Assembly: GCF_014196125.1 (NCBI RefSeq)
Contig: NZ_JACIDA010000002.1
Coordinates: 806,001 to 870,000, forward strand
Source: Brevundimonas mediterranea
GTDB lineage: Bacteria > Pseudomonadota > Alphaproteobacteria > Caulobacterales > Caulobacteraceae
DNA length: 64,000 bases
Direction: 5' to 3'
Position numbers and translations under genes: made by a program. Shown here one piece after another: positions 46,626 to 62,792 of the stretch (position 1 is its first letter; each line of letters starts with the position of its first letter). The notes under the pieces are model-generated. The model made no database searches and was not told where the DNA came from. It saw nothing but the letters and a program-made list of their open reading frames with translations.

Positions 46626-47603
46626 CTAGGGCGCCGGTTCCACGTGGCCACCGAACGCTAGCCGCATCGCCGACAACAGCTTTTCACCGAACGTGTGTTG
46701 TTGGCGGGATCGAAAACGGACGAAGAGGGCTGTCGCCAACACATCAGCGGGAACGGCTTCCTCAATGGCGGCTTCAACCACCCAGCGGGCCTCACCGCTG
46801 TCCATCACGCTGCCAGAAAAGCCCGCCAGGTGCGGGTCATCGGCAAGGGCCTGAGCGGCGAGGTCCAGAAGCCAGGATTGGACGACGCTGCCTCTGCGCC
46901 AAACCTCGGCGATATCCGCAAGGTTCAGATCGTAGCGCTCCTCCGGCGGCAGGGCAGCGGACCCCTTCCCTCGCAGAACATCGAAGCCTTCAGCATAGGC
47001 CTGCATGAGCCCATACTCGATACCATTGTGAACCATCTTGACGAAATGACCCGCACCGACGGGTCCTGCGTGGATATACCCCCGCTCGGCCCTGGGGTCG
47101 GAGCCGGGTTCCCGCCGCGTCATCGTCGTCGCGCCTCGTCCCGGAGCGAGTGATCGAAGGACCGGATCAATACTCTCCACAACCTCACCAGCCCCGCCCA
47201 CCATCAGGCAGTAACCGCGTTCCAGTCCCCAAATTCCTCCCGAGGTGCCGACATCAAGATAGAACAGGCCCTTGGCCTTCAAGGCTTTTTCTCGCCGGAT
47301 GTCGTCGCGGTAATAAGTGTTTCCGCCGTCAATTATCGTATCGCCGGGCGCCATCGCGGCCGCCAGCTGACTGATGACATCCTCGGTGACCCCACCGGCT
47401 GGCAACATGACCCACACGCGTCGCGGGAGCGCCAGACGACGCGTTAAGTCGACCAAGCTTTTGGCCGCCGCCGCCCCTTGGGCAACCAAGGCGTCGAGAG
47501 CAGTCGGGTCAAGATCGTAGACGACGCACGTGTGGCCGTCGGCCAGCAAGCGTCTGGCAATGTCGCCTCCCATCCGGCCCAGGCCCACAATTCCTAGCTG
47601 CAT
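46626..47603 (-). CDS. gnd: 6-phosphogluconate dehydrogenase, decarboxylating (short YqeC/GntZ type)
   Basis: About 325 residues from [20 protein letters not shown] (NAD(P)-binding). Further motifs: [14 protein letters not shown], the substrate segment [20 protein letters not shown] and the catalytic lysine in [20 protein letters not shown]. Converts 6-phosphogluconate to ribulose 5-phosphate plus CO2; the short form is often NAD-dependent. It would supply pentose phosphate for the phosphoketolase encoded downstream. Divergent from the alcohol dehydrogenase gene with an FNR box between. Confidence 0.9.
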
Positions 47604-47960: not shown

Positions 47961-49034
47961 ATGAGCAAGATGCGGGCAGCCGTTTTCGTAGAGCCGGGTC
48001 GCGTCGTCCTTGAGGACAAGACGATCCCGGAGATTGGTCCGCTCGATGCGCTGATACGGATCACGACGACCACGATCTGCGGCACGGATGTGCACATCCT
48101 GAAGGGAGAGTACCCCGTGGCCCGGGGTCTCACCGTAGGACACGAGCCTGTCGGGGTTATCGAAAAGCTCGGACGGGAGGTGCGCGGGCTGAAGGAGGGG
48201 CAGCGGGTCATTTCGGGCGCGATCACCCCGAGCGGCTACAGCAACGCCTGCCTTTGCGGTCACCACTCCCAGGACGGCGCCGGCGCCGAGCATGGCTGGA
48301 AGCCGGCAGGCGGCTGGAAGCTCGGCAACACCATTGATGGTTGCCAGGCTGAATATGTCCTCATACCCGATGCGATGGTGAACCTGGCCGTGATCCCGAA
48401 AGGTCTCACCGACGAACAGGTTTTGATGTGCCCGGACATCATGTCGACCGGCTTCAGCGGCGCGCAAAGCGGGGAGGTCAGCATCGGCGACACGGTCGCC
48501 GTGATGGCCCAAGGTCCCATCGGCCTTTGCGCGACTGCCGGAGCCAGGCTTATGGGCGCGGCCGTCATTATCGTCGTCGACCGGATCGCTTCGAGACTCG
48601 AAGTCTCACGGAGACTGGGCGCCGATCATGTCATTGACGCAAGCAAAACCAACCCCGTCGAAGAGATCATGCGGATCACCCGCGGGCGCGGCGTCGATGT
48701 GGCGATCGAGGCTTTAGGGACCCAGGCGACGTTCGAGGCCGCCTTGCGGGTCCTGCGGCCGGGCGGTGTGCTGTCGAGCCTCGGCGTCTACTCGACCGAC
48801 CTCAAGATTCCCATGGATGCCTTCACCTCGGGGCTCGGCAACCACAAGATCATCACCACGCTATGTCCGGGCGGCAAGGAACGGATGCGCCGACTGCTGG
48901 CCGTCATCGAGTCCGGGCGGGTGGATCTGAGCGCCATGGTGACCCACCGCTTCAAGCTCGATGAGATTGAAGCGGCCTATGATCTATTCTCGCATCAGAG
49001 AGACGGCGTGCTAAAGGTCGCGATAACGCCCTAG
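47961..49034 (+). CDS. Zn-dependent alcohol dehydrogenase (MDR family)
   Basis: 357 residues. Zinc-type MDR signature GHEPVGVIEKLGREVRGLKE, catalytic Cys in TTTICGTDVHIL, and the nucleotide fold DTVAVMAQGPIGLCATAGAR. The usual four-cysteine structural zinc loop is replaced by a shorter ACLCGHHSQDGAGAEHGW stretch. Relatives act on isopropanol, butanediol or ethanol with NAD(P). A perfect FNR box upstream suggests use in anaerobic redox balancing, reoxidising NADH by reducing an aldehyde or ketone. Confidence 0.9.
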   Translation: MSKMRAAVFVEPGRVVLEDKTIPEIGPLDALIRITTTTICGTDVHILKGEYPVARGLTVGHEPVGVIEKLGREVRGLKEGQRVISGAITPSGYSNACLCGHHSQDGAGAEHGWKPAGGWKLGNTIDGCQAEYVLIPDAMVNLAVIPKGLTDEQVLMCPDIMSTGFSGAQSGEVSIGDTVAVMAQGPIGLCATAGARLMGAAVIIVVDRIASRLEVSRRLGADHVIDASKTNPVEEIMRITRGRGVDVAIEALGTQATFEAALRVLRPGGVLSSLGVYSTDLKIPMDAFTSGLGNHKIITTLCPGGKERMRRLLAVIESGRVDLSAMVTHRFKLDEIEAAYDLFSHQRDGVLKVAITP

Positions 49035-50653: not shown

Positions 50654-51523
50654 ATGTCCTTCAAATGTATGCTGGTCCACGTCGAAGGTCGGCCTTTGCC
50701 GGATCCACGACTGGCGCTGGCTGTCGATCTCGCCAATCAGTTCGGCGCCAGGCTGCTCGGCGTCGGCGCCGAACTCTACGAGAGTTCCTATTATGGCGGT
50801 GATGGCTACGGCGGCGACAGATATGGCGGCGAGGGTTTCGGCTACGGGGGAGACGACCTGACCGAGGCGAAACTAAAAGCTGTAGAGGCCGGCCTGAAGC
50901 GTGCAGAGGAGAAATTCAGGCACGCGGCCCTGCAGGTACAGGCGGGATCGGAATGGCGGGCAAGGGTGGAGTTCCCGTTGGCCACAATTTCCGCGGAAGC
51001 TCGTTCAGCCGATCTCCTCATCACCAGCCGCAGCGAGCGACGCGGGGCGTCGGAATACGACGTTGCCCACCCCGGCGCTTTGATAATGCAGACCGGCCGC
51101 CCCGTGTTGGTGACACCTCCCGGCGCGCCCGAGCTTAAAGTCAGAAGCGTGGTGGTGGCATGGAAGGACACGCGAGAGGCGCGGCGCGCCCTCGTGGATG
51201 CCTTGCCCTTCTTGCAGCGAGCTGAAACCGTCCTGGTGGCGGAAATCTGCGACAACAAGAGCGCGGAGCCGGCGACGATGGATCGCTTGACTGATGTAGC
51301 CAGCTATTTGCTTGATCATGGCGTGCAGGCAACCGTCGATGCGGCCATTGGAGAAAGGGACGCTGGCGCCGCCGACCAGTTTCTGGATCTTGCTGAACGA
51401 CAGAAGGCGGACCTCATTGTCGCCGGCGCCTTTGGCCACAGCCGTCTCCAGCAATGGGTGTTCGGCGGGTTCACGCGAACCTTGCTTGCGCAAACCACCC
51501 GTGCGGTACTTTTGAGTCATTGA
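50654..51523 (+). CDS. Universal stress protein, two tandem Usp domains
   Basis: About 289 residues, AGGGAG six bases before ATG 50654. The first Usp-like domain (MSFKCMLVHVEGRPLPDPRL) is interrupted by a Gly/Tyr/Asp-rich insertion around residues 48-70 (ESSYYGGDGYGGDRYGG then EGFGYGGDD). The second domain ends with ADLIVAGAFGHSRLQQWVFG and GFTRTLLAQTTRAVLLSH, the G-x2-G-x9-G-S/T type ATP-binding tail. Tandem Usp proteins are typical of hypoxia and stress regulons. Confidence 0.9.
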   Translation: MSFKCMLVHVEGRPLPDPRLALAVDLANQFGARLLGVGAELYESSYYGGDGYGGDRYGGEGFGYGGDDLTEAKLKAVEAGLKRAEEKFRHAALQVQAGSEWRARVEFPLATISAEARSADLLITSRSERRGASEYDVAHPGALIMQTGRPVLVTPPGAPELKVRSVVVAWKDTREARRALVDALPFLQRAETVLVAEICDNKSAEPATMDRLTDVASYLLDHGVQATVDAAIGERDAGAADQFLDLAERQKADLIVAGAFGHSRLQQWVFGGFTRTLLAQTTRAVLLSH

Positions 51524-51619: not shown

Positions 51620-52537
51620 TTAGTCCGCCTCGCGACGTCGGCGCCGGACCGGGCCATCCGACTCCAGGGTCTGCAGCGCCGCCGCTACAAGCGGCGCGAG
51701 CCTGATGGCATTGCTGGCATGCAGGACGCTGTCGCTTGACACGACCCTTTCGGAGACGCGGGAGAGCTCTGCGAAGGCCTCCCCCGCAAAGATACCGTGA
51801 ACGACGACGCAGACGGGCGGCGGCAGGCCTCGTTGTTGCAGTTGGCGAGCGGCCTCGATGAGTGTTCGTCCGGAGGACGCAATGTCGTCGAGCAGGACCG
51901 GGCGGCGGTCTGGCCACGGCGTGAGGTCCGGAAACTCGATCTCGACCTCGCGATCCCCGCGCCGGATTTTGCTCAGCACGACATGGGGCGCACCGACTGC
52001 TGCGGCGACCGCCTGGACCCACTGCTCGCTTTCCTCATCGGGACCGATGATCAACGGGTGAGGAACTTCGGCGGCGATCCATTCGGCCAGCGCGGGCGCG
52101 GCATGCAGCGTGCGGGTGGGAATGGCGTACAGGGCGGTCAGTGCCGGATAGCGGTGCAGATGCGGGTCGACCGTGACGAGGCGGTCAAAGCTGCTTGAGA
52201 TGAGCCGGGCGAACGGACGCGAGGTTACGGCCTCGCCGGTCGCGAAGCGCCGGTCCTGACGCATGTAGGCCAGATAGGGCGCGACCAGATTCACCTCCGC
52301 CGCGCCGAGATCCCGGGCTGCGTCGGCTGCAAAGATCAAGCTCAGGAACCCCGGATCCGGACGGGCCAGACTACAGACCACATCGACGGGGCGTCCGACT
52401 ACGTCGGACAAAAGCCGGACATAGCTCTCGCCGTCCGGAAAATGGCGGGTTTCTAGCCGTCCGAGCTCAAATCCACCCGCCTTGGCCAGCTGCTCGCCGA
52501 AGGCCTCATTCCCCGGCATGGGCAGGATCAATCGCAT
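51620..52537 (-). CDS. prs: Ribose-phosphate pyrophosphokinase (PRPP synthetase)
   Basis: About 305 residues from MRLILPMPGNEAFGEQLAKA. Interconverts ribose 5-phosphate + ATP and PRPP + AMP. Motifs: HFPDGESYVR, the ATP/Mg site VDPHLHRYPAL, the flexible loop KIRRGDREVEIEF and the PRPP loop VLLDDIASSGRTLIEAA. The SSGRT loop and short length fit the class found in archaea and accessory bacterial clusters rather than the housekeeping Prs. It may therefore work in catabolic nucleotide turnover here. Confidence 0.9.
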   Translation of the reverse strand: MRLILPMPGNEAFGEQLAKAGGFELGRLETRHFPDGESYVRLLSDVVGRPVDVVCSLARPDPGFLSLIFAADAARDLGAAEVNLVAPYLAYMRQDRRFATGEAVTSRPFARLISSSFDRLVTVDPHLHRYPALTALYAIPTRTLHAAPALAEWIAAEVPHPLIIGPDEESEQWVQAVAAAVGAPHVVLSKIRRGDREVEIEFPDLTPWPDRRPVLLDDIASSGRTLIEAARQLQQRGLPPPVCVVVHGIFAGEAFAELSRVSERVVSSDSVLHASNAIRLAPLVAAALQTLESDGPVRRRRREAD

Positions 52538-52855
52538 GTGGACTCCCGAAAACAGAATTGAAGACCTTAGCCCATCGCCGCCGCCGGGGAACTTGCGCCC
52601 TTGCCGCGTCATCACGGGACGCTAGCTCAGACGCGGCAGCCGGGTCGCCCTTACAATGGGTGCGCTTGCCTTGGGACCGCAGTTCGCGACCTTCCCGGCC
52701 GGGCGCGCCGACCGGTTGTCTCAGGTATCGCCGACCCGAACCCGGTCGTGGTCACCACTGACGCCGGAACAGAAGCCAGCCTCCGAGGAACATGGCGCCG
52801 CTGATCCCGCCAGGGCCAAGGCGTAAGATCAGAGCTCGGCCAGGCCGGCTCCCTT
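52538..52855. other. Intergenic stretch upstream of prs
   Basis: About 320 bases between the prs start and the lipoprotein remnant. On the minus strand around 52755-52830 a short hydrophobic piece (GGISGAMFLGGWLLFRRQW) ends in a stop and could be the tail of a lost membrane protein gene. Otherwise nothing recognisable. Confidence 0.3.
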
Positions 52856-52939
52856 GAGAAAAAGGCCGGATCCCATGTCGCGCGCCCCGGTCGGCGCGAC
52901 GATCCGGTCAGGGCCGTCTCCGCCTATGAACAGCCGTGA
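52856..52939 (+). pseudogene. Internally deleted copy of the 42933 lipoprotein gene
   Basis: GAAAAAGGCCGGA and an ATG, as before the intact gene, are followed directly by the last codons of that gene in another frame: GRRDDPVRAVSAYEQP and stop, against GRRDEPVRAVFTYERS in the intact copy. The middle of the gene is gone. The remnant lies next to the intact prs gene, the mirror image of the 42.7 kb locus. Confidence 0.65.
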
Positions 52940-54282
52940 CAGGCCGTGCCGGGCGACGGTGTGGCGGCGCCCGTGCACGGATCAATGTTCGCAACGGCTG
53001 CCGGCAGAACGAGGACCGGCGCGAACCCGCCGCCCGGCGTGCGCATGTTGGTGGTCTGCCCCTGGTAGAGCCGGGCGGCCGCGAGCAGCATCCTTCCTCC
53101 GTAGGTGTAGAGGCGCACATCGACCTTCAGACTGACCGGCTCGGCAGCGGGCGGAATGCGTCGTTCTCCCGGAGCGGCATAGGTCTGGGCGACGTAGGTG
53201 GAGTTCTTGATCTCTTCCCAGACCCGCCGGGTGAGTTTGGCGCCGCGGTAGGTCGCCTTGCTGGCGTGGCCCCGGGCCGGCTTGAAGAACCAGTTGCGCC
53301 GGTCCGCCCAAAGCTCGGCGGCGTTTTCCGGCCCTACGAGGACGGTCCGGGGAACGGCCGCCGCAAGGACCGCGGCCTGCTCCGCCGCCAGTCCCCAGCT
53401 GCGGAGTCTGTCCGGGTCGGACAGCAGGGTGAGGTTCTGCTTGTCTGCGAGGCGGCTATAGATGTGCGGGTTGGGCGTGACCACCACAAGGCCTCGCTCA
53501 TAGGCCTGCCTGAGGACCGCGTGGGTCGGCTGCTCCAGCAGGAAATCGACGAGGCGATTGTAGACGATGTCCACCCGGACGCCGCCGAGCATCAGCGCAT
53601 CACCTACGATCGTCAGATCGCGAGGGTCCGCGACCAGGGCTTCAAGGCCGGCCGCCCGAAGCTGAGCCTGAGCGAGCCTGAACTCCGGGTACAGCGGCTG
53701 CGCCTGCGGATCATCATCGAGGATGGCCACCGTTGCGGGCGTCCCTTTCCCGTTTTGCAGTCGCCACTCTTTACGGAACATCTCGCCGACCTGCTGCTGG
53801 AACGCAGCGGGTCCGGGCGTTTCGACACCGGCGACGACGCCGGCGCAACAGATCTGCTGCGAGCGGGCGAGAACCGCGTTCAGGAAGGCGCCTCCGGCGT
53901 TGGTGTTGATCTCGATGAGCTTGGGGCCGGACGGCGTGACGTGGAAGTCATACCCCATGAAGACACCATGAGGACCGGGATCCCGACGTGCGAGCGGGGG
54001 CGTCCATGCAGCCGCCGCTTCGCGATAGCCGGGTAGCATTACCGCCGTTTCCGCGGCCGCGACCACGGCCATCATCCGGTCGAGCGTCTCCGCGGGCAGG
54101 AAGACGGGGGACCGCGCGAACAGCCAGGGGTGGGTTTCCGCCAGGTCCGCGGCAAATCCGGGGATCCCCGTCTCACGATCAAGCGCGGCCGCGAGGGCCG
54201 TCTGATCCACCCCCACGCAGAAGCAGCCGCCGTTCAGCTGGTCTGCGCGGACGGAGCCGGCCGAGGGCGACAGGTCGGTCAT
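52924..54282 (-). CDS. ATP-grasp-like protein of unknown function
   Basis: About 452 residues from MTDLSPSAGSVRADQLNGG (AAGGAGG eleven bases upstream). Segments suggest an ATP-grasp fold: GYDFHVTPSGPKLIEINTNA, VDIVYNRLVDFLLEQPTHAV, WFFKPARGHASKATYRGAKL and LKVDVRLYTYGGRMLLAAAR with YQGQTTNMRTPGGGF. These resemble nucleotide- and metal-binding elements of carboxylate-amine ligases, but I do not recognise the family. It follows acetate kinase on the same strand by 50 bases, so it is probably part of the acetyl-phosphate/ATP operon. Confidence 0.6.
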   Translation of the reverse strand: MTDLSPSAGSVRADQLNGGCFCVGVDQTALAAALDRETGIPGFAADLAETHPWLFARSPVFLPAETLDRMMAVVAAAETAVMLPGYREAAAAWTPPLARRDPGPHGVFMGYDFHVTPSGPKLIEINTNAGGAFLNAVLARSQQICCAGVVAGVETPGPAAFQQQVGEMFRKEWRLQNGKGTPATVAILDDDPQAQPLYPEFRLAQAQLRAAGLEALVADPRDLTIVGDALMLGGVRVDIVYNRLVDFLLEQPTHAVLRQAYERGLVVVTPNPHIYSRLADKQNLTLLSDPDRLRSWGLAAEQAAVLAAAVPRTVLVGPENAAELWADRRNWFFKPARGHASKATYRGAKLTRRVWEEIKNSTYVAQTYAAPGERRIPPAAEPVSLKVDVRLYTYGGRMLLAAARLYQGQTTNMRTPGGGFAPVLVLPAAVANIDPCTGAATPSPGTACHGCS

Positions 54283-54331
54283 CAATGAACGGGCCTCCTT
54301 GTGGTGGCGAACCGGCGTGAACTGCGCCGAG

Positions 54332-55501
54332 TCACCGGTCAAGGCCAAGCAGCCGGGACACGTGGCGCGCGATCACGCGTTCTTCGTCCGTGCGGATCAT
54401 CCAGACGGTGACGGGAGCGCCGACCGCGCTCAGGCGTCCAGTACCGCGACGATTGGCGGCCGGGTCGAGTTCGACCCCCAACCAGGCGAGCCGTGCGCAG
54501 ATCTCCGCCCGGATCCGCGGCGAATTCTCGCCGATGCCCGCGGTGAAGACCAGACCGTCGAGACCCTCCAGGCTCCCCGCCAGGGCCGCGACCTCGCGCG
54601 CCGCCCGATAGACGAACAGATCGACCGCCTCCCGCGCGGCCGGGCTGTCGCTTTCCAGCAAAACCCGCATGTCGCCACTGAGACCCGAGACGCCCAGCAG
54701 GCCGGAGCGCCGATAGAGCAGATCGACCAATCCGGCGGCGTCGAGGCCCCCGGCTTGCTGCAGATAGAGCACCACCCCAGGGTCCAGGCTCCCACAGCGC
54801 GTGCCCATGACCAGGCCGTCGAGCGGCGTGGCGCCCATGGTGGTGTCGATGCTCCGGCCGTTCCTCAGCGCGCAAAGGCTCGCGCCCGAACCCAGATGGG
54901 CCGCAACCACGCGTCCCTCAGCCATCGACGGATCGAGCATCGCAAGCTGTCCGGCCACAGACTCGTAGGACAGGCCGTGGAAGCCGTAGCGGCGAAGCCC
55001 TCTGGCTTCCCAGAGCCGGGGCAGACCCAGCCGATCCGCCACCGGTTCGTGACCGCCATGGAAGGCGGTATCGAACGTCAGGACCTGAGGCAGATCGGGA
55101 CACGCCTTGCGGAGCGCCCGGACCCCCGCAAGTCCTTGCTGCTGGTGCAGGGGCGCAAGCGGGGCAAGGGCCTCAAGGCTCTCGAGAACCGGTTCGGAGG
55201 CGGCGACCGCCTGGCTGAAGTCGGGGCCGCCGTGGACCACGCGATGTCCGACCGCGGCCACGGGTCCGGCCAGTCGCGCCTCCACCCAACGCAACAGATC
55301 TGACGTCGCGTCGTCGCCCCCGGCGACCCAGGGCGTTTCGGACAGGACGCCGCCGGCGGCGTCCTGGCTCACGAGCCGTCGACCCGCGCCGTTAGATTCG
55401 ATCCGGCCCCGCAACACCGGTGCAAGGTGTCCCCGGGCGGCTTCGAACACGCCGAACTTGACCGTGGAGGAGCCGACGTTGAGGGCGAGGACAGGCGGCA
55501 T
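54332..55501 (-). CDS. ackA: Acetate kinase
   Basis: About 389 residues. Transfers phosphate from acetyl phosphate to ADP, giving ATP and acetate. Motifs: LALNVGSSTVKFGVF, GHRVVHGG, LTFDTAFHGG, AAHLGSGASLCALRNGRSID and MGTRCGSLDPGVV, and FTAGIGENSPRIRAEI near the end. The start is either ATG 55501, which begins at the conserved strand, or GTG 55546. Intact counterpart of the broken gene at 19542. It would use acetyl phosphate made by the phosphoketolase encoded 5 kb away. Confidence 0.93.
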   Translation of the reverse strand: MPPVLALNVGSSTVKFGVFEAARGHLAPVLRGRIESNGAGRRLVSQDAAGGVLSETPWVAGGDDATSDLLRWVEARLAGPVAAVGHRVVHGGPDFSQAVAASEPVLESLEALAPLAPLHQQQGLAGVRALRKACPDLPQVLTFDTAFHGGHEPVADRLGLPRLWEARGLRRYGFHGLSYESVAGQLAMLDPSMAEGRVVAAHLGSGASLCALRNGRSIDTTMGATPLDGLVMGTRCGSLDPGVVLYLQQAGGLDAAGLVDLLYRRSGLLGVSGLSGDMRVLLESDSPAAREAVDLFVYRAAREVAALAGSLEGLDGLVFTAGIGENSPRIRAEICARLAWLGVELDPAANRRGTGRLSAVGAPVTVWMIRTDEERVIARHVSRLLGLDR

Positions 55502-55698
55502 CCTGGCGTTGACCTCGGGCTGGCGCACGCCGGGCGTGCTGTTCACGTCCTGACGCAGCCAATCCTCGCCCGTTACAGACCCGACCGCGCCGGCCGCCTC
55601 GCCGCCCTCACCCTCGATCCGGGCGCGGCGTAATACTTTGCCGCCGGCGGCGTCTGACAGGCAGCGATGTTCAGTCTCTCCCGAAAGGATTCAGCCCC

Positions 55699-55938
55699 AT
55701 GGCTTCGAACCGACCAGGACGCATCCTGAATCTCCTCACCTTCGCAGCCTTCGGCGCAGGGTTGGCCTATCTGCTCATCGGGGAGCATCGTGTTCATCTC
55801 CTCGGCTGGCTGCCGTTCCTCCTGATCCTGCTCTGCCCGCTGCTGCACATGACCATGCACGGCGGTCATGGGCGCGGGCATCGTCAGGGACCGCCGGGCC
55901 CTTCGGCCGCCGATTCCTCCCGTCCGCACCAATCCTGA
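55699..55938 (+). CDS. DUF2933-like small His-rich membrane protein (copy C)
   Basis: 79 residues: two hydrophobic segments (LLTFAAFGAGLAYLLIGEHR, LGWLPFLLILLCPLLHMTMH) followed by GGHGRGHRQG. The double span plus the LLCPLLHMxMH-His cluster is the classic DUF2933 layout, often next to an ICMT-type methyltransferase, as here (11 bases downstream). Suggested role in copper or metal handling is from context. Confidence 0.8.
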   Translation: MASNRPGRILNLLTFAAFGAGLAYLLIGEHRVHLLGWLPFLLILLCPLLHMTMHGGHGRGHRQGPPGPSAADSSRPHQS

Positions 55939-55949
55939 GCGAGGTTCCC

Positions 55950-56609
55950 ATGCCCGAACCGCAAGCCTACGGCCTCTGGTCCCTCGTCATCCTGAACTCG
56001 GTCCTCTTCATCTTTTTCGCCTTCACCTTCTTCAAGCCGAGGACGGGCCGGGACTGGCGCTCGTTCGGCGCCTTCAGCGCCTTCCTGGTGGCGCTCTTCA
56101 CCGAGATGTACGGTTTCCCGCTCACCCTCTATTTCCTGTCCGGCTGGCTGCAAACGCGCTTCCCCGGCGTCGATTGGTGGTCGCACGACGCCGGCCACCT
56201 CCTGGAGACGATGTTCGGCTGGAGGGCGAACCCCCATTTCGGACCCTTCCACATCCTCAGCTTCGCCTTCATCGGCGGCGGCTTCTGGCTCATCTCCGCG
56301 GCCTGGCCGGTGCTCTATCGCGCTCAGCAGGAAGGCGCATTGGCCGCCAGCGGACCCTATCGGTCCATCCGCCATCCGCAATACGTCGGCTTCGTCCTGG
56401 TGATGTTCGGCTTCCTGTTGCAGTGGCCGACGGTTCTCACCCTGGGCATGTTCCCGGTCCTGGTCTTCATGTACTGGCGGCTGGCAAGGAGCGAGGAACG
56501 CGAGACCGAAGCCCGCTTCGGCCCGGAGTACGCAACCTACAGGCGGGCCACGCCGGCCTTCATTCCGCGGCTGCGCTCCCGGGCGGCCCCGGCGCCTTCC
56601 CGCCTCTGA
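55950..56609 (+). CDS. Isoprenylcysteine carboxyl methyltransferase (ICMT)-type membrane protein
   Basis: 219 residues, ATG preceded by GAGG. About five membrane spans; the C-terminal ASGPYRSIRHPQYVGFVLVM and RSEERETEARFGPEYATYRR match the SAM-binding ICMT/PEMT motif (HPxYxG ... E.. ..FG..Y..Y). Bacterial substrates of this family are unknown. Its pairing with the DUF2933-like gene recurs near copper genes in other bacteria. Confidence 0.85.
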   Translation: MPEPQAYGLWSLVILNSVLFIFFAFTFFKPRTGRDWRSFGAFSAFLVALFTEMYGFPLTLYFLSGWLQTRFPGVDWWSHDAGHLLETMFGWRANPHFGPFHILSFAFIGGGFWLISAAWPVLYRAQQEGALAASGPYRSIRHPQYVGFVLVMFGFLLQWPTVLTLGMFPVLVFMYWRLARSEERETEARFGPEYATYRRATPAFIPRLRSRAAPAPSRL

Positions 56610-56888
56610 TATTCCGTTCGGGTCCCGATCTCAAAGCTCCCTACGCCCATTACAGGTCGGCGATTGGCGCCGCCTGCATCCGAAGGGCGCTCACCACACG
56701 ACCGCAGGATTCGTTTCAGCTTTCGCCGGACGGCCTTGCCTCGCTCACAGCGCCAATACGCGCCGCAAAGGACAATCCCTCGGAATATCGGCTGCAAATA
56801 TTCTTGATCTGACCGTTTGATCTATCGCAATCCCGGCCGACATTTCCGGACCGATCCTGCCTTCATGTTGAAGAGCGGGACTTGTCAG

Positions 56889-57575
56889 ATGAGCCTGAAT
56901 TGCGCCTCCATATTGACCGCGCCCGGGACAGCGCGCGCTCCGATCCGCCTTGTCCCGGCGTCGGCCCGTCCCGACGACATTCACCAGCTCGTGGAACTCC
57001 GGCTTCGAAAGGGCCGGGCCGGCCATTTGCGTTTCCTCAGGCGACGCCTCCGGTCCCAGGAAGACGCCGAAGACGTTCTGCAGGAGTTCGCCCTGAAGGC
57101 CACCCAGGGTGCAGGACACCTGACCAACCCCGGCAAGATTGATGCATGGCTCGGCATCGCGCTGCGCAACGCCCTGTTCGACCGCTACAGGCGCAATGCG
57201 AGCCGTACACGGCTGAATGAGGCCATGCTGTCGGAGTTTCCTGTACCCGCCGCAGATGATGCGCCCGAGGGTCTGGACCGGGCTTTGCAATGCTTGGCGG
57301 GAGCACTGGACGAGCTCAGGCCCGAGGCCGCCCAGCTCGTGCGGCGCGCCGAGCTCCAGGAGACGCCGCTGAAGGTGATCGCCGTCGAGATGCAGCTGAC
57401 CACCAACAACATCGGTGTTCGGGTCCACCGCGCCCGGGCGGCGCTGCGTGAACGCATGCAGGCGCGTTGCGGCGCCTGCCCGGAGCCCTGCGCCCTCGCG
57501 GCGCGGTGGAGGCAAGCCGTCGATACGGCGGGTCAGGCCTCGATCTCGATCATATCGCCATGCGACGCCGCATAG
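56889..57575 (+). CDS. ECF-type RNA polymerase sigma factor
   Basis: About 228 residues from MSLNCASILTAPG (ATG 56865 is an alternative; neither has a strong ribosome site). Region 2: RFLRRRLRSQEDAEDVLQEF and KIDAWLGIALRNALFDRYRR. Region 4: ETPLKVIAVEMQLTTNNIGV and RVHRARAALRERMQ. The C-terminus has CGACPEPC, a possible metal- or redox-sensing cysteine group. No anti-sigma gene is adjacent. The last 43 bases overlap, tail to tail, the end of the AMP phosphorylase gene. Confidence 0.88.
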   Translation: MSLNCASILTAPGTARAPIRLVPASARPDDIHQLVELRLRKGRAGHLRFLRRRLRSQEDAEDVLQEFALKATQGAGHLTNPGKIDAWLGIALRNALFDRYRRNASRTRLNEAMLSEFPVPAADDAPEGLDRALQCLAGALDELRPEAAQLVRRAELQETPLKVIAVEMQLTTNNIGVRVHRARAALRERMQARCGACPEPCALAARWRQAVDTAGQASISIISPCDAA

Positions 57576-59059
57576 TCGAGCGCATAGGCGAGTTCGCCCG
57601 CCGTCTCGGCGTGCACCGTCAACAATGGCTGGCCCGCTGAGACTTCCGTGCCCAGGCGCACCTGCATCTGGACGCCGGCGGCCTTGCGTTCAGGCGCGCC
57701 AGCCAGCTTGGCCAGCGTAGCGACCTGGCGGTTGTTGATGAGGATGACGCGGCCGGATCGGGTCGCCTGGATGGGCGCCCGCTGGGCCGCGACGGGCGGT
57801 GTGCGCATGCCCCCTTGCGCCTCGCAGATCCGCTCAAATCGCGCCCAGGCGCGACCATCAGCGAGAACAGCCTCGGCCGCTTCGGCGCCCCGACCGGCTT
57901 TCGCCACGCCGGCAAGTTCGAGCGCGGCGCCCGCCAGCAGGCAGGCGCGCTGGCGCAGGTCCTGCGGCGCTTCGGGTCGGTTCTGCAGCACCGCCAGAAC
58001 ATCAAGCGCTTCCAGCGCCGGGCCGATGCCGACGCCGACCGGCTGCTCCCCGTCGGTCTGAACGCAGAGGGCCTTCAGGTCGAACCGGGCCGCGATCTCG
58101 ACGAGCCGTTGCGCCAACTTCGCGGCCGCCTCTCTCGTCCGCACCTTGGCGGTGGCGCCTACGGGAATGTCCAGCACCACATGGGTGGAACCCGCCGCGA
58201 TCTTCTTGGACAGGACCGAGGCGATCAGCTGGCCTTCGGTGTCGACGTCGAGGACCCGCTCCACGCGGATAAAGATGTCGTCGACCGGGCTGAGCTTCAC
58301 AGCCCCGCCCCAGACGACGCAGCCGTTCTCGGCTTCCACCACGCGGCGCATGGCGGGCAGATCGAGATCGACCGGCGCCAGGGTCTCCATGGTGTCGGCC
58401 GTGCCGGCCGGTGAAGTGATGGCCCGCGAGGAGGTCTTGGGCGTGACCAGGCCGCAGGCGGCGAGGATGGCGACGACGATCGGCGTCGTGCGGTTGCCGG
58501 GAAGTCCGCCGATGCAGTGTTTGTCCATGACGATATCCGACGGCCAGCTCAGGCGGTCGCCGACGTCCACCATGGCCCGGGTCAGCGCCCCCGTCTCGGC
58601 GTCGTCCATCGGCAGCACCGATGTCGCGGTCAGAAAGGCCGCGAGATGGATCGGCGTGTATCGCCCGGCGGCCACGTCCCTGACGACACCCCGGATCGCG
58701 GCCTCATCCAGCCGCGCTCCATAGATCCGGCGGCGAACGCTGGACATGGATTCGATGGCCGGAGCGTGTCGCACGACGACGGGATCGCCCGGCGCCACCG
58801 CCAACTGCCGCCAGGCCTCTTCGGAGAGCGCCGCCTCGTCGAGGCCGAGAACGTCGCCGTCCATCTGGTACAGGGTGGCGTAGACCTCCCGGCCGGCGGC
58901 CGAAAGCACCACCTGGGAGCGGGACGACAGGCCTTCGGAGCGGCAGACGTGGCAGTCGCGCCGCATCAGCACGATCGACTCGTGCTGGGCGTACAGGCCG
59001 AAGCGGCGCGCCTTGAGGGGCGCCGCCGCATGGGGTGCAGTCTTGACCACTTTGCTCAC
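57533..59059 (-). CDS. AMP phosphorylase / thymidine phosphorylase-type enzyme (archaeal-like long form)
   Basis: About 508 residues from a GTG overlapping the previous stop (GTGA). The length and an N-terminal extra domain before DEAAIRGVVRDVAAGRYTPI match archaeal AMP phosphorylase rather than the shorter DeoA. Core motifs: MDKHCIGGLPGNRTTPIVVA, TSSRAITSPAGTADTMETL and GGAVKLSPVDDIFIRVE. Expected reaction: AMP (or another nucleoside monophosphate) + phosphate to ribose 1,5-bisphosphate + base. Third gene of the phosphoketolase operon; the substrate needs testing. Confidence 0.88.
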   Translation of the reverse strand: MSKVVKTAPHAAAPLKARRFGLYAQHESIVLMRRDCHVCRSEGLSSRSQVVLSAAGREVYATLYQMDGDVLGLDEAALSEEAWRQLAVAPGDPVVVRHAPAIESMSSVRRRIYGARLDEAAIRGVVRDVAAGRYTPIHLAAFLTATSVLPMDDAETGALTRAMVDVGDRLSWPSDIVMDKHCIGGLPGNRTTPIVVAILAACGLVTPKTSSRAITSPAGTADTMETLAPVDLDLPAMRRVVEAENGCVVWGGAVKLSPVDDIFIRVERVLDVDTEGQLIASVLSKKIAAGSTHVVLDIPVGATAKVRTREAAAKLAQRLVEIAARFDLKALCVQTDGEQPVGVGIGPALEALDVLAVLQNRPEAPQDLRQRACLLAGAALELAGVAKAGRGAEAAEAVLADGRAWARFERICEAQGGMRTPPVAAQRAPIQATRSGRVILINNRQVATLAKLAGAPERKAAGVQMQVRLGTEVSAGQPLLTVHAETAGELAYALDYAASHGDMIEIEA

Positions 59060-60414
59060 AGCTCGTGCCGCTCCATCATCTGCGGGATGACGCAGTCCCA
59101 TCCGAGCCGGTCCTGAATCCGGACCCGTAGGGCGTCCGCCGCATGGGGCTCGCCGTGAACGATGAAGGTCTTGCGCGGCGGTCGCTTGAGGCCGGAAAGC
59201 CAGCGCAGGATTTCCTCGTAGTCGGCGTGGGCCGAGAGCATCGGCAGGTTGGCCACCTCCGCTTTGACCTGAACCCACTGACCGTGGATCTTCACCTCCT
59301 TGGCGCCCTCGACCATCGAACGCCCGCGGGTTCCCGCCGCCTGGAAGCCTGAAAACAGGATGGTGTTGCGCCGGTCCGGGCCGAAGGCCTTGATATGGTG
59401 GAGCACCCGCCCGCCGGTGGCCATGCCGCTGGCCGAAAGGATGACCTTGGGCATGGGGCTGGCGGTGAGTTTCTTGGAGGCGTCCACATCGCGCACATAG
59501 GTGGCGATGCCGCAGGCGGCGTCGCACACGTCGGCCGGCATGCGATGGTCCTCCAGGTGCGCGCACAGGAGGTCGGTGGCGTTGATCGCCATGGGGCTGT
59601 CCATATAGATCGGCGTCAGGCCGATCCGCCCCGCCTGCTTCAGCCGCCAGATGTGGTACAGCAGCGACTGGGCCCGGCCGACGGCGAAGGTGGGAATGAC
59701 CACGGTCCCGCCGCGCGCGGTGGTGCGTTCGATGATCTCGCCGAGGGCTTCCGTGGGGTCCTGGGGGTCATGGAGCCGGTCGCCATAGGTCGATTCCACG
59801 ACCACATAGTCGGCCTCCGCCACCGGCTCGGGATCGACCATGGTGGCGTCGCCGTAGCGGCCGAGATCGCCGGAAAACAGGATCTTCGTCCCGTTCCAGG
59901 TCACCTCGGCGGTGGCCGCGCCGAGGATGTGCCCGGCGCGCCGCAGCGTCAGGCTGGCTCCGCCCGGCAGCTGGACCGACGTGTGGAACGCGATCGGGGT
60001 AAAGCGCTCCACCGCGCGTTCGGCGTCGTGCACGCCATAGAGCGGCAAGGCCGGCTTGTGTTTGCCGTAGCCGTAGCGGTTGGCCTGTTCGGCGTCCTTC
60101 TCCTGGATATGGCCGCTGTCGCGCAGGATGATCTCCGCGACATCCCGCGTCGCGGCGCTGGCCAGGATGGGCCCGCGAAAACCGTCCTTCACCAGTTTCG
60201 GCAGGTAGCCTGAGTGGTCCAGGTGGGCGTGGGTCAGGACCACCGCGTCGATGCTTGAGGGCTCGACCTGGAGGGGGGCCCAGTTCTGTTCGCGCAGGGT
60301 CTTGAGGCCCTGGAAAAGGCCGCAGTCGATCAGGATGCGGCGGCCATCGGCCTCCAGCAGGTGTTTTGATCCGGTGACGGTGCCGGCGCCGCCGAGGCTG
60401 GTGAGACTGATCAC
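59056..60414 (-). CDS. Metallo-beta-lactamase/beta-CASP nuclease (RNA exonuclease-like)
   Basis: About 452 residues from GTG 60414 (AAGGA upstream), overlapping the phosphoketolase stop by four bases. Zinc ligands in VVLTHAHLDHSGYLPKLV, RRAGHILGAATAEV and FSGDLGRYGD; the beta-CASP block VESTYGDRLHDPQDP, SASGMATGGRVLHHI and SAHADYEEIL. Members cleave RNA (CPSF73/RNase J-like). Its place between carbon-metabolism genes hints at RNA turnover supplying nucleotides to the AMP phosphorylase. Confidence 0.9.
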   Translation of the reverse strand: MISLTSLGGAGTVTGSKHLLEADGRRILIDCGLFQGLKTLREQNWAPLQVEPSSIDAVVLTHAHLDHSGYLPKLVKDGFRGPILASAATRDVAEIILRDSGHIQEKDAEQANRYGYGKHKPALPLYGVHDAERAVERFTPIAFHTSVQLPGGASLTLRRAGHILGAATAEVTWNGTKILFSGDLGRYGDATMVDPEPVAEADYVVVESTYGDRLHDPQDPTEALGEIIERTTARGGTVVIPTFAVGRAQSLLYHIWRLKQAGRIGLTPIYMDSPMAINATDLLCAHLEDHRMPADVCDAACGIATYVRDVDASKKLTASPMPKVILSASGMATGGRVLHHIKAFGPDRRNTILFSGFQAAGTRGRSMVEGAKEVKIHGQWVQVKAEVANLPMLSAHADYEEILRWLSGLKRPPRKTFIVHGEPHAADALRVRIQDRLGWDCVIPQMMERHEL

Positions 60415-62792
60415 GATGGAGATCCTTCCGGGGGTGAGATTTGCAGGATGCGGGGGTGTGCTTCGCCGCGGACGGCGGCCATCTCCCCGGGTGTCAGGAC
60501 GTCGGCCGCGTCGGCGCCGAGGAGGTCCGCACAGGCGACCGCGGCGTGAGCCCAGGTGCACCGGTTGGCGAACAGCATGCCGGGGGTGTCGAGCGTCCCG
60601 CCACGGCTGAGGTAGCCGAGCGCCCGGGTGCGCTCGGGCCCTCCGTCGAGGCGGCGCAGCAGTCCGAGCATCGGCTCCGGGCGGGTGTGGGTGAGGATCA
60701 GACGGGGCAGGCGTTGGGGAAAGAGCGCTTCCAGCGCCTCGGCCGAGACCACGTGCGCCGCCTCGATCTCGTCCCTCGGGGCCCGGAATCGTCCCGGTTC
60801 GAGCAGAGCCGTGACACAGGCGCGGCGGCCATGATGCGTGAGTCGCGCAGCCGCCGCCAGCGCCTCCCGCGCCTGATAGGCGCCGACCGCAACGATCTGG
60901 ATCTCGGCCCTGTCCAGGTCCCCGCCGATGAGCGCCGCGCCGCGCTCCCAAAGATCCTGGGCCGCGGCCCCGTCGAGCACCTGCGGCAGCGTCCGTTTGG
61001 GCGTGATCAGACACGCGACCTCTCCGCGCCGGCCATAGACCCCGCGGAGCGCGGCGACGGCGCTGTTGGCGTCCACCGGGAACAGCACCCGGGCGGTGTC
61101 CGACATCTCCCCGAGCAGGGCCTCGGCGAGCGTGGGATCCTGGTGCGACTGTTCGTTCTTGCCGTTCTCCCAGGTGTGGGATGTGGCCAGCAACGGGACG
61201 GCGAGCCATCCCGGGACCTGGCCGCTCTCGCGCTGATGGCGCGCGAAAATCACCTCCTGGCGCAGGAGACCCAGCATCTTCACCGCAAACGCTTCGTAGC
61301 TGACGATGAGATTGAGCCCGCCCTTGTTGCCCAGCGCGGCGCCGGCCACCGCCTCTTCATTGAGGGCGGTGATCACCGCCCCGTCGATCGCCTCGGGAAC
61401 GCCGGGTTCCGGTCGGTTCACCCGGTGGCCAAGCCGGTCGAGCGTACGCCCCATGCCATTGCTGCGAAGCTCGTCGGGATTGCCGAGGCGGACGCGCAAG
61501 CCCGGGTTGGCGTCGACGAATTCCACGAACCAGACGTCGATCGCCTCCATCGGGGACCTCGCCGTGTCCGACCAGTCCGGAATGGGCCGCACGGGCGGCG
61601 GCGGCGCGCGCCGCGCGGCCGGATGGCGGCTTTCCAAAGGCCGGCGCTGCAGGTCGTGGGTCGTGAGAACCCCCAGGGCGGCGTCGAGCTCGCTTCCCTG
61701 TACGAACAGCGCCGCCGCCGCGGCGTTGAACGCCGCCCGCGCCTGCTCGTCCGTTCGAGGATCGCCGTCCAGTGGCAGATTGTGGGCGCGGTTCGTCCCG
61801 GCGCCTGGAAAGCCGAACCCCTTGACCGCCCGGGCGATCACATAGGGCAATGGCGCCGGATAGGCCCGGTCGGGATCCGCTGTGAAGCGCTTCAATCGCT
61901 CCTCGGAGTCGAGAATGGCCCACGCCACGGCGGCTGGATCGTGACCGTCGATCTGGATCGGGTCGAAACCGTTCAGGCGCAGGTGTCGTTCGAGCCAGCC
62001 CGCGCCGCCGTCCTGGGCGATCTCCGTGCGTTCCTCTATGCGCCGCCCGTTGAGGATCATGAGGGGCGTCACCAGGCCGCTGTCCTCCGCCCGCCACCAG
62101 CGCGGGGACCAGTCGGAGCCACGCTGCTCCTCGAAGGCGCCGTCGCTCAGGAAGGCGACCAGACTCTCGCCGGCCAGCGGCATATGGACATATTCGAGCT
62201 CGGCGAACCCGAGATAGCCGCCCTCCGAGACGGCCCCGGCCGTGTCCGGCCCGGCATGGCTGCCAAGCGGCGCGGCGGGCCGGCCGTCGGCGCCAATGGC
62301 GTAGCTGTAGAAGTCCGAAACGAGCTGGGACAGGCCGGCGTCCGAGCGGCTGTACCGACCCTTTTGCCGGGCAGAGACATCGCCGGTCAGCGCGTTGACC
62401 GCCTCGATCGCAGCCACGCAGTGCCCCTGGCCCATGATCCAGGACCGCGTGACGCCGGACAGGGCGTTCGCCAGCAAATAGCCGACGAAGGCCGGGACCA
62501 TGTTCAGCGAGCCGCCGGTATGGCCCTCCGGCAAGTCCTTGAAGGCTTCCGTCGGCAAGGGCGCTCCGGACAGATCCACCCGGCGTACATAGGTCATGTG
62601 CGCCACCAGCCACATGCCGGCGCTCGCCAGCCGATCGGCGGCGGCCACCAGACGGTAGACCGACTCCTCGTCCGGCCAGACGCCTCGGCGCACGAGACGC
62701 TGCGCCATGTCCTCGATCCGCGTGACGGTGTCGGCTTGCCGGACCAGAGGCCCATAGCCGGGTTTCCACGTTTCAGCCCAGGTGATCGACAC
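60411..62792 (-). CDS. xfp: Phosphoketolase (xylulose-5-phosphate/fructose-6-phosphate)
   Basis: About 793 residues from GTG 62792 (AAGG upstream). Thiamine diphosphate enzyme that splits xylulose 5-phosphate (or fructose 6-phosphate) with phosphate into acetyl phosphate and glyceraldehyde 3-phosphate (or erythrose 4-phosphate). Signature EGHTGGSLNMVPAFVGYL, the cofactor segment AFLSDGAFEEQRGSDWSPR, PFGFPGAG-like VKGFGFPGAGTNRAHNLPL and SHTWENGKNEQSHQDPT. First gene of the operon; with acetate kinase it yields ATP from pentose phosphate without respiration. Confidence 0.94.
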   Translation of the reverse strand: MSITWAETWKPGYGPLVRQADTVTRIEDMAQRLVRRGVWPDEESVYRLVAAADRLASAGMWLVAHMTYVRRVDLSGAPLPTEAFKDLPEGHTGGSLNMVPAFVGYLLANALSGVTRSWIMGQGHCVAAIEAVNALTGDVSARQKGRYSRSDAGLSQLVSDFYSYAIGADGRPAAPLGSHAGPDTAGAVSEGGYLGFAELEYVHMPLAGESLVAFLSDGAFEEQRGSDWSPRWWRAEDSGLVTPLMILNGRRIEERTEIAQDGGAGWLERHLRLNGFDPIQIDGHDPAAVAWAILDSEERLKRFTADPDRAYPAPLPYVIARAVKGFGFPGAGTNRAHNLPLDGDPRTDEQARAAFNAAAAALFVQGSELDAALGVLTTHDLQRRPLESRHPAARRAPPPPVRPIPDWSDTARSPMEAIDVWFVEFVDANPGLRVRLGNPDELRSNGMGRTLDRLGHRVNRPEPGVPEAIDGAVITALNEEAVAGAALGNKGGLNLIVSYEAFAVKMLGLLRQEVIFARHQRESGQVPGWLAVPLLATSHTWENGKNEQSHQDPTLAEALLGEMSDTARVLFPVDANSAVAALRGVYGRRGEVACLITPKRTLPQVLDGAAAQDLWERGAALIGGDLDRAEIQIVAVGAYQAREALAAAARLTHHGRRACVTALLEPGRFRAPRDEIEAAHVVSAEALEALFPQRLPRLILTHTRPEPMLGLLRRLDGGPERTRALGYLSRGGTLDTPGMLFANRCTWAHAAVACADLLGADAADVLTPGEMAAVRGEAHPRILQISPPEGSPS

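What the first reader, a model, noticed from the sequence alone, without database searches (positions are those of the whole stretch)
51620..62792. Candidate nucleotide-to-acetate ATP pathway: AMP phosphorylase, PRPP synthetase, phosphoketolase, acetate kinase and a beta-CASP nuclease
Phosphoketolase, an RNA-nuclease-like enzyme and an archaeal-length AMP/thymidine phosphorylase are fused into one operon by GTGA overlaps. Acetate kinase, an accessory-class PRPP synthetase and an ATP-grasp-like protein lie just beside it, and 6-phosphogluconate dehydrogenase 5 kb away. Known reactions allow RNA to NMP to ribose phosphate to xylulose 5-phosphate to acetyl phosphate to ATP. No ribose-1,5-bisphosphate isomerase is visible, so the link from phosphorylase to pentose phosphate is unknown; PRPP synthetase or the ATP-grasp-like protein could fill it. 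This is the best candidate here for an undescribed energy-salvage system.
Basis: partly seen in the sequence, partly recalled or inferred. Interest (0 to 1): 0.85.

Follow-up and report, generated by a model that had tools for sequence, protein, structure and literature searches.

The report
Low-oxygen RNA-to-acetate energy gene set
A mobile set of bacterial genes, of a kind switched on at low oxygen in a relative, may break RNA building blocks into sugar phosphate and acetate to make ATP, with an odd PRPP-synthetase-like enzyme as the probable missing step.

Summary
The genes are real. A divergent phosphoketolase, a beta-CASP nuclease and an NMP-phosphorylase-like enzyme overlap by GTGA; acetate kinase and a PRPP-synthetase-like gene (PRS) lie beside them. 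Published Bradyrhizobium tables show both operons induced by low oxygen and dependent on FixK2. New here: 92 of 92 distinct PRS of this family replace the glycine two residues after catalytic Asp170 by glutamate, while most other catalytic residues stay. The host genome shows no R15P isomerase, no Rubisco and no PhnN above cut-off. So this PRS is the best candidate for the missing step, perhaps R15P + AMP -> R5P + ADP; that reaction is inferred, not shown. The ATP-grasp protein looks like a glutathione-synthetase-type ligase, not the link. Surroundings fit emergency fermentation: lactate dehydrogenase, archaeal-type GAPDH, NAD-type 6-phosphogluconate dehydrogenase and FNR-type boxes (15 seen, 0.7 expected), inside a copper-resistance island.

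The parts
60411..62792 (-). divergent phosphoketolase-like enzyme (XFP), 793 aa
   Evidence: Pfam XFP 130 bits and XFP_N 47.6 bits, no XFP_C; model matches phosphoketolases first, TM 0.72 at 20% identity; catalytic residues kept
59056..60414 (-). beta-CASP metallo-hydrolase (putative RNase), 452 aa; GTGA overlap with XFP
   Evidence: Pfam Beta-Casp 109.5 and RMMBL 66.5 bits; closest solved relative Ribonuclease TTHA0252, E 5.7e-78
57533..59059 (-). NMP(AMP)-phosphorylase-like enzyme, 508 aa; GTGA overlap with the nuclease
   Evidence: TIGR02645 and PRK04350 over cut-off, TIGR03327 below; best solved relative 4ga5, E 2.2e-95; archaeal-type motifs kept
54332..55501 (-). acetate/propionate kinase
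   Evidence: Pfam PF00871 325.8 bits; TIGR00016 320.2 over cut-off 293.4; PRK07058 438.4 below its 486
52924..54282 (-). ATP-grasp ligase of glutathione-synthetase type, downstream of acetate kinase; probably not part of the pathway
   Evidence: no Pfam match, no NCBIfam match better than E 0.13; AF2 pLDDT 80.8; Foldseek glutathione synthetase / glutathionylspermidine synthase
51620..52537 (-). PRPP-synthetase-like enzyme, PRK07199 family, with altered loop P-D-E-E-S
   Evidence: PRK07199 419.9 bits, cut-off 322; active-site comparison
46626..47603 (-). NAD-type 6-phosphogluconate dehydrogenase; local neighbour, not a conserved companion
   Evidence: TIGR00872 378.1 bits, cut-off 297.2
47961..49034 (+). 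zinc-type alcohol dehydrogenase; local neighbour
   Evidence: Pfam ADH_zinc_N 101.8 bits
47862..47875 (+). FNR/FixK-type box TTGATTCACATCAA between 6-phosphogluconate dehydrogenase and alcohol dehydrogenase
56817..56830 (+). FNR/FixK-type box TTGATCTATCGCAA upstream of the ECF sigma gene
56865..57575 (+). ECF sigma factor, possible relay of the oxygen signal (guess)
   Evidence: Pfam Sigma70_r2 and r4_2; start taken at the first ATG after the box
55950..56609 (+). PEMT/ICMT-type methyltransferase, frequent neighbour
   Evidence: Pfam PEMT 35.2 bits; match in 23 of 80 loci; start read by eye
50654..51523 (+). universal stress protein; local neighbour (5 weak matches in 80 loci)
   Evidence: Pfam Usp 36 bits

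Best explanation
This is a mobile emergency-fermentation module, probably for low oxygen, that burns RNA/nucleotide ribose. The beta-CASP nuclease frees 5'-NMPs. The phosphorylase splits NMP + Pi into base + ribose-1,5-bisphosphate (R15P). The PRPP-synthetase-like enzyme, changed at the loop thought to hold the transferred diphosphate, returns R15P to ribose-5-phosphate, most likely by passing the C1 phosphate to AMP (R15P + AMP -> R5P + ADP). Housekeeping isomerase and epimerase give xylulose-5-phosphate. The phosphoketolase makes acetyl phosphate + glyceraldehyde-3-phosphate, acetate kinase makes ATP, and archaeal-type GAPDH plus lactate or alcohol dehydrogenases finish the triose and balance NADH. 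SHOWN by computation: gene identities, linkage, co-inheritance, conserved catalytic residues, the PRS change, absence of matches to the archaeal link enzymes. SHOWN by others in a relative: co-induction at low oxygen of genes with these names and order. INFERRED: all reactions, their direction, and the PRS chemistry.
For: Linkage: 17 of 17 genomes with PRS over cut-off (the host is one) hold the phosphorylase against 35 of 240 overall, 13 of 17 adjacent; distance correlation of the two proteins 0.90, n=84, best of 500 permutations 0.237. In 80 phosphorylase loci: nuclease 70, PRS 63, divergent XFP 35, acetate kinase 28 at 200 bits or more, and a canonical phosphoketolase in 8 others. A chlamydial plasmid has phosphoketolase, glgP, ATP-cone protein, nuclease, phosphorylase, PRS and acetate kinase in a row. 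Plasmids: type II GAPDH matches 37 of 72,556 records, yet 11 of the 15 with the divergent XFP. Regulation: Bradyrhizobium tables; 15 FNR-type boxes against 0.7 expected in 122 kb of the host, two of them just upstream of type II GAPDH and beta-phosphoglucomutase genes. Link: E for G172 and S/A for G173 in 92 of 92; no R15P isomerase or Rubisco match, PhnN only below cut-off; epimerase Rpe present. Enzymes: phosphorylase motifs of archaeal type; XFP catalytic residues kept.
Against: No activity is measured. The phosphorylase is below the strict AMP_phos cut-off. 18 of 35 phosphorylase genomes lack this PRS over cut-off, so PRS is not always needed; G200 has a PRS of the family just under cut-off and no phosphorylase. 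The divergent XFP was in only the host of 240 genomes. In the window no FNR-type box lies directly upstream of the XFP operon, acetate kinase or PRS, and only 10 of 80 loci have a box near the operon start. The Bradyrhizobium genes are not changed in soybean nodule bacteroids ('-' in that column). Three XFP active-site positions differ from known phosphoketolases, so its substrate may differ. R15P + AMP -> R5P + ADP is probably somewhat uphill (recalled energetics) and would need pulling by the phosphoketolase.
Confidence: 0.5

Rival explanations
1. Metal-stress bypass. In a copper/metal island the set replaces metal-sensitive sugar catabolism: 6-phosphogluconate dehydrogenase, phosphoketolase, acetate kinase and type II GAPDH go round the Fe-S dehydratase of the Entner-Doudoroff pathway and ordinary GAPDH; phosphorylase, nuclease and PRS only recycle nucleotides.
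For: The host's 122 kb holds copper-type P-type ATPases and a copper-resistance multicopper oxidase; a P-type ATPase cluster whose representative is of zinc/cadmium type occurs in 34 of 80 loci and a heavy-metal P-type ATPase lies directly upstream of PRS on a Rhizobium plasmid; cueR/copCD beside it in Sphingobium.
Against: Bradyrhizobium control is by oxygen through FixK2; in the stretches shown for Novosphingobium, Sulfitobacter and Criblamydia no gene is annotated as copper-related, though Criblamydia has a cation P-type ATPase; 6-phosphogluconate dehydrogenase is not a conserved companion; Entner-Doudoroff dependence and metal sensitivity are recalled, not tested.
Confidence: 0.17
2. Base-salvage or PRPP-recycling unit: the PRS is a normal PRPP synthetase, or turns R15P into PRPP, and the phosphorylase supplies or uses R15P to rebuild nucleotides; phosphoketolase and acetate kinase are merely co-regulated.
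For: PRS keeps the nucleotide, R5P and catalytic residues, and PhnN-type R15P to PRPP chemistry is known in E. coli (passage in PMC9700705).
Against: Making PRPP spends ATP, odd in a low-energy regulon; the loop after Asp170 carries an acidic residue in 92 of 92; an ordinary PRS is also in the host genome (third hit).
Confidence: 0.2
3. AMP drain: the phosphorylase mainly removes AMP under energy stress to pull adenylate kinase towards ATP, and the ribose is a by-product.
For: An ATP-cone gene, a domain known (recalled) to sense adenylates, lies in the chlamydial operon; AMP is a substrate of the archaeal enzyme (PMC9700705 passage).
Against: Does not explain the tight nuclease fusion, nor the phosphoketolase and acetate kinase.
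Confidence: 0.08

Closest known systems
Archaeal NMP shunt / pentose bisphosphate pathway (Thermococcus NMP phosphorylase, R15P isomerase, form III Rubisco)
   Same: Same phosphorylase family, hence NMP to R15P expected
   Different: No match to R15P isomerase or Rubisco models in the host genome; the carbon is expected to go to phosphoketolase, with a PRPP-synthetase-like protein as the link
FixK2 low-oxygen regulon of Bradyrhizobium diazoefficiens (bll3117-bll3116-bll3115 and bll2518-bll2517)
   Same: Same five named functions, induced at 0.5% oxygen and lower without fixK2 (tables seen; bll3116 only in the first, bll2517 only in the second)
   Different: There two separate operons; orthology to the window genes rests on names and order; in the passages I read no pathway is proposed
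Heterofermentative phosphoketolase pathway
   Same: Phosphoketolase, acetate kinase and, in this window, 6-phosphogluconate dehydrogenase
   Different: Feed from nucleotides proposed; divergent phosphoketolase, about 20-29% identical to known ones
PRPP synthetase (E. coli Prs)
   Same: Family, nucleotide and R5P residues, K-x-R loop
   Different: G172 to E, G173 to S/A, D224 to S/A/T

Membership tests
NMP (AMP) phosphorylase | full-length family match | tested here: met
   TIGR02645 561.5 bits over 434.6; PRK04350 657.7 over 434
NMP (AMP) phosphorylase | strict AMP phosphorylase equivalog cut-off | tested here: not met
   TIGR03327 467.8 against 535; so called NMP-phosphorylase-like
NMP (AMP) phosphorylase | activity on 5'-NMPs rather than nucleosides | not testable with these tools
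   only motif similarity to the archaeal type
PRPP synthetase | family match and residues F35, D37, R96, Q97, H131, D170, K194, R196, D221 | tested here: met
   92 of 92; D170 and H131 roles from PMC9232217 passages; K194/R196 numbering recalled
PRPP synthetase | glycine pair after D170 (diphosphate loop; name recalled) | tested here: not met
   E at the first and S/A at the second in 92 of 92; canonical set G in 12 of 12 and 11 of 12
PRPP synthetase | PRPP formation from R5P + ATP | not testable with these tools
   -
Phosphoketolase | overall fold | tested here: met
   the first 20 PDB matches are phosphoketolases, TM up to 0.72; model pLDDT 77.7, with several loops under 50
Phosphoketolase | residues with catalytic roles (BbPK H64, H97, H142, G155, E437, E479, Y501, N549, H553) | tested here: met
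   all among positions identical in at least 90% of both groups, 31 divergent plus window and 7 canonical; roles from passages of PMC6435721 and PMC10547157; mapped by me via the alignment
Phosphoketolase | active-site residues Q321, Q546, H548 and XFP_C domain | tested here: not met
   fixed as N, N, K; no XFP_C match
Archaeal NMP shunt | R15P isomerase and Rubisco | tested here: not met
   no PF01008 and no PF00016 match at E 0.001 in the 99.7% complete genome; controls rang
Beta-CASP ribonuclease | MBL + beta-CASP + RMMBL domains | tested here: met
   TTHA0252 relative
FNR/FixK regulon | box at the promoter of the core operon | tested here: not met
   none at the XFP operon; boxes at an ECF sigma gene and other island genes
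Glutathione-synthetase-type ATP-grasp ligase | overall fold | tested here: met
   the 20 best PDB matches are 18 glutathione/homoglutathione synthetases or effectors like them, Ligase Cp1B and a putative glutathionylspermidine synthase; TM 0.47-0.61

The most novel reading that the evidence does not exclude
The PRPP-synthetase-like enzyme is an undescribed R15P:AMP phosphotransferase (R15P + AMP -> R5P + ADP). Together with the phosphorylase it would fix inorganic phosphate straight into ADP from RNA: substrate-level phosphorylation that turns the cell's own ribosomes into an anaerobic fuel, carried between bacteria on plasmids.
Probability: 0.2. Interest if true: 0.92.

Novelty: new variant of a known kind. 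Interest (0 to 1): 0.76.

Why it matters
If true it gives bacteria a third exit for ribose-1,5-bisphosphate, besides Rubisco and the haloarchaeal route. It would explain why a low-oxygen regulon such as that of Bradyrhizobium carries a 'thymidine phosphorylase' and a 'PRPP synthetase', add an enzyme activity to a family thought to be uniform, and show a plasmid-borne way to live off one's own RNA without oxygen. The question is directly testable with three purified proteins.

Tried and rejected
ATP-grasp as R15P enzyme: rejected after structure search. PhnN as link: one 49-bit hit under the 156-bit cut-off, probably a related kinase. 6-phosphogluconate dehydrogenase, alcohol dehydrogenase and universal stress protein as conserved members: 1, 3 and 5 of 80 loci with any match, so they are local neighbours only. 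Direct FNR control of the XFP operon: no box; an ECF relay is only a guess. Metal-gene enrichment could not be measured well: 26 of 56 loci of 16 kb or more hold a P-type ATPase signature, but the only background was 45 kb (0 hits) and my P1B pattern missed the host's known copper ATPases, so I do not use that number. Neighbourhoods of the 18 phosphorylase genomes without PRS were only partly read because the output was cut; among those seen, some small genomes have the phosphorylase among housekeeping genes without nuclease, others (L162, L163) have a nuclease-like neighbour. Literature: no paper with 'AMP phosphorylase' + 'phosphoketolase', none with the four- and three-term sets; only two Bradyrhizobium papers surfaced; R15P and NMP-phosphorylase searches listed mainly archaeal or unrelated work (one search showed 30 of 38). 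Only open-licence PMC papers were searched. Looking for the diphosphate loop by name or residue number in two PRPP synthetase papers gave nothing, so that name stays recalled.
Full report
WHAT IS THERE. The window lies in a 3.41-Mb, 99.7% complete genome whose nearest named loci are from Brevundimonas and other Caulobacteraceae. On the minus strand, XFP (60411-62792), nuclease (59056-60414) and phosphorylase (57533-59059) overlap by GTGA twice; acetate kinase (54332-55501) and an ATP-grasp gene (52924-54282) form a second unit; PRS (51620-52537) stands apart. Family searches confirm each name except the ATP-grasp protein, which has no Pfam or meaningful NCBIfam match. The genome carries a second set about 40 kb further on (phosphorylase C2:907632-909104, XFP 910501-912875 split over two frames, PRS 893575-894441).

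CO-OCCURRENCE. I took the 80 best phosphorylase loci of named genomes (of 326 found) and searched them with the window proteins. At 200 bits or more: nuclease in 70 of 80, PRS in 63, divergent XFP in 35, acetate kinase in 28, methyltransferase in 23, ATP-grasp in 17. A canonical phosphoketolase is in 8 others. The sigma gene matches in 21 (9 at 200 bits). Clustering of predicted genes adds a P-type ATPase in 34 and type II GAPDH in 14; many loci are truncated, so these are lower bounds. 6-phosphogluconate dehydrogenase, alcohol dehydrogenase and universal stress protein match in only 1, 3 and 5 of 80 and are not conserved companions. Orders differ: PRS-XFP-nuclease-phosphorylase, XFP-nuclease-phosphorylase-PRS, or canonical phosphoketolase-PRS-nuclease-phosphorylase followed by PhaC, Pta and acetate kinase (L109, and further off in L110 and L112).

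In an even draw of 240 Alphaproteobacteria, phosphorylase PRK04350 is in 35 and PRS PRK07199 over cut-off in 17, the host included in both; all 17 are among the 35, and in 13 the two matches lie within 100 bases. Against this: 18 of the 35 have no such PRS, and G200 has a PRS of 312 bits (cut-off 322) without phosphorylase. The divergent XFP is rare: the host only, of 240; the other six genomes with hits show 25-29% identity. Within the genus 10 of 91 genomes have a phosphorylase over the TIGR02645 cut-off, so the set is accessory.

MOBILITY. On plasmids (72,556 records) the divergent XFP covers at least 80% of the query on 15 records, type II GAPDH matches on 37, and 11 of the 15 carry both. 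Of the 60 best PRS records shown (of 84), 52 are among the 60 best phosphorylase records shown (of 99). Annotated examples: Novosphingobium pLA4, Rhizobium sp. ZX09 (P-type ATPase-PRS-XFP-nuclease-phosphorylase), Sulfitobacter (phosphorylase-PRS-XFP, no nuclease beside them), Acidovorax (nuclease-phosphorylase-PRS, then type II GAPDH and XFP; PPK2 nearby), Sinorhizobium pSinB (phosphorylase-PRS only), Sphingobium pSLPG (nuclease-phosphorylase-PRS) and, from another phylum, Criblamydia sequanensis with canonical phosphoketolase, glgP, ATP-cone protein, nuclease, phosphorylase, PRS and acetate kinase (its phosphoketolase is over several cut-offs). The public name of the divergent XFP there, 'xylulose 5-phosphate 3-epimerase', is not supported by the fold.

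THE LINK. Archaea pass R15P to R15P isomerase and Rubisco (passages of PMC9700705). The host shows neither, and no PhnN above cut-off; ribulose-5-phosphate epimerase is present (the R5P isomerase was not searched). That leaves PRS as the best candidate. In E. coli Prs, Asp170 and a Mg2+ hold the C1-C3 hydroxyls of R5P and His131 the nucleotide Mg2+ (passage of PMC9232217). I compared 92 distinct sequences scoring at least 130 bits to the window PRS (the family; a few come from places where no phosphorylase was seen, such as G200) with 12 ordinary alphaproteobacterial ones. The position two after Asp170 is Glu in 92 of 92 (Gly in 12 of 12), the next Ser/Ala in 92 (Gly in 11 of 12), and position 224 Ser/Ala/Thr in 92 (Asp in 12 of 12), while F35, D37, E39, R96, Q97, H131, D170, K194, R196 and D221 are unchanged in 92 of 92; R99 and G227 vary. 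Three plasmid-borne PRS, one of them chlamydial, show the same P-D-x-E-S. From recall, this loop holds the diphosphate in PRPP synthetases. A negative side chain there fits a substrate with one phosphate on C1, that is R15P, and the reverse of the normal chemistry with one phosphate less is R15P + AMP -> R5P + ADP. This is inference. Protein distances of phosphorylase and PRS correlate at 0.90 (84 loci; 500 permutations reach at most 0.237); part of that is shared ancestry.

THE OTHER ENZYMES. The phosphorylase keeps the archaeal-type motifs (G-G-x-P-G-N, K-T-S-S-R-A-I-T-S-P-A-G-T-A-D) that the four ordinary thymidine phosphorylases shown in the alignment lack. The nuclease is closest to RNase TTHA0252. 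The XFP keeps the residues given catalytic roles in the Bifidobacterium enzyme, but has N, N, K for Q321, Q546, H548, and its model matches phosphoketolases ahead of transketolases. The ATP-grasp model resembles glutathione synthetase and glutathionylspermidine synthase.

REGULATION AND SETTING. In B. diazoefficiens Table 2 of PMC6515984 lists nuclease, PRS, phosphorylase and phosphoketolase (bll3115, bll3116, bll3117, bll2518) up at 0.5% oxygen in protein (log2 2.9, 4.4, 2.1, 4.3) and transcript (15.4, 7.7, 5.1, 8.2-fold), but with no change in soybean bacteroids and '-' as FixK2 targets by an older definition. A table in PMC9104804 gives FixK2-type motifs for two predicted operons, bll3117-bll3116-bll3115 and phosphoketolase-acetate kinase bll2518-bll2517, and changes of -6.6 to -30.6 in the fixK2 mutant for the four genes listed, bll3116 not among them. 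I saw passages and tables only, and orthology to the window genes rests on product names and gene order, not on an alignment.

In the host, window plus the next 58 kb contain 15 FNR-type boxes where shuffles give 0.7. Seven were read with their flanks: between 6-phosphogluconate and alcohol dehydrogenase, and upstream of two ECF sigma genes, a type II GAPDH, a beta-phosphoglucomutase-like gene next to a GH65 gene, an FNR-family regulator and a cytochrome c (gene names). The island also holds L-lactate dehydrogenase and a D-2-hydroxyacid dehydrogenase and copper-type P-ATPases, a copper multicopper oxidase and a cyclopropane fatty acid synthase. Across the 80 loci there are 91 boxes against 22 expected, but only 10 loci have one near the operon start, so control must differ between lineages.

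VERDICT. I rate it a new variant of the known NMP-to-central-carbon pathways, with a real chance of a new enzyme activity in the PRPP synthetase family.

Noticed in passing
L115 region, genome C2:910501-912875: The second XFP copy of the host is split over two frames (residues 189-793 and 2-196 in different frames), so it is probably inactive or a sequencing error.
   Followed up: partly
L113:7712-8794, genome C2:905610-906662, window 31991-32614: Up to three archaeal-type (type II) GAPDH genes in the host: the first confirmed by family search, the other two by eye only, the window one partial. Cyclopropane-fatty-acid-synthase-like genes lie next to the first and, by eye, the second.
   Followed up: partly
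L114:1684-2469: FNR-family regulator with a cysteine-containing N-terminus in the same island, with an FNR-type box just upstream.
   Followed up: partly
L113:15661-18704: Beta-phosphoglucomutase-like gene beside a GH65 gene behind an FNR-type box; glgP lies in the chlamydial operon. Phosphorolytic sugar use may be a common theme.
   Followed up: no
window 52924-54282: Large family (7854 of 7998 scored candidates) of glutathione-synthetase-type ATP-grasp ligases; the window member has no Pfam or meaningful NCBIfam match.
   Followed up: partly
plasmid records: Public annotation calls the divergent XFP 'xylulose 5-phosphate 3-epimerase' in 14 of the 15 best records, probably a misnomer.
   Followed up: partly
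window 63133-64173: Gene reading MKETTMFYAALDVSLRSVAVCVIDEEG, looking like an IS110-type transposase (from recall), next to the XFP operon.
   Followed up: no
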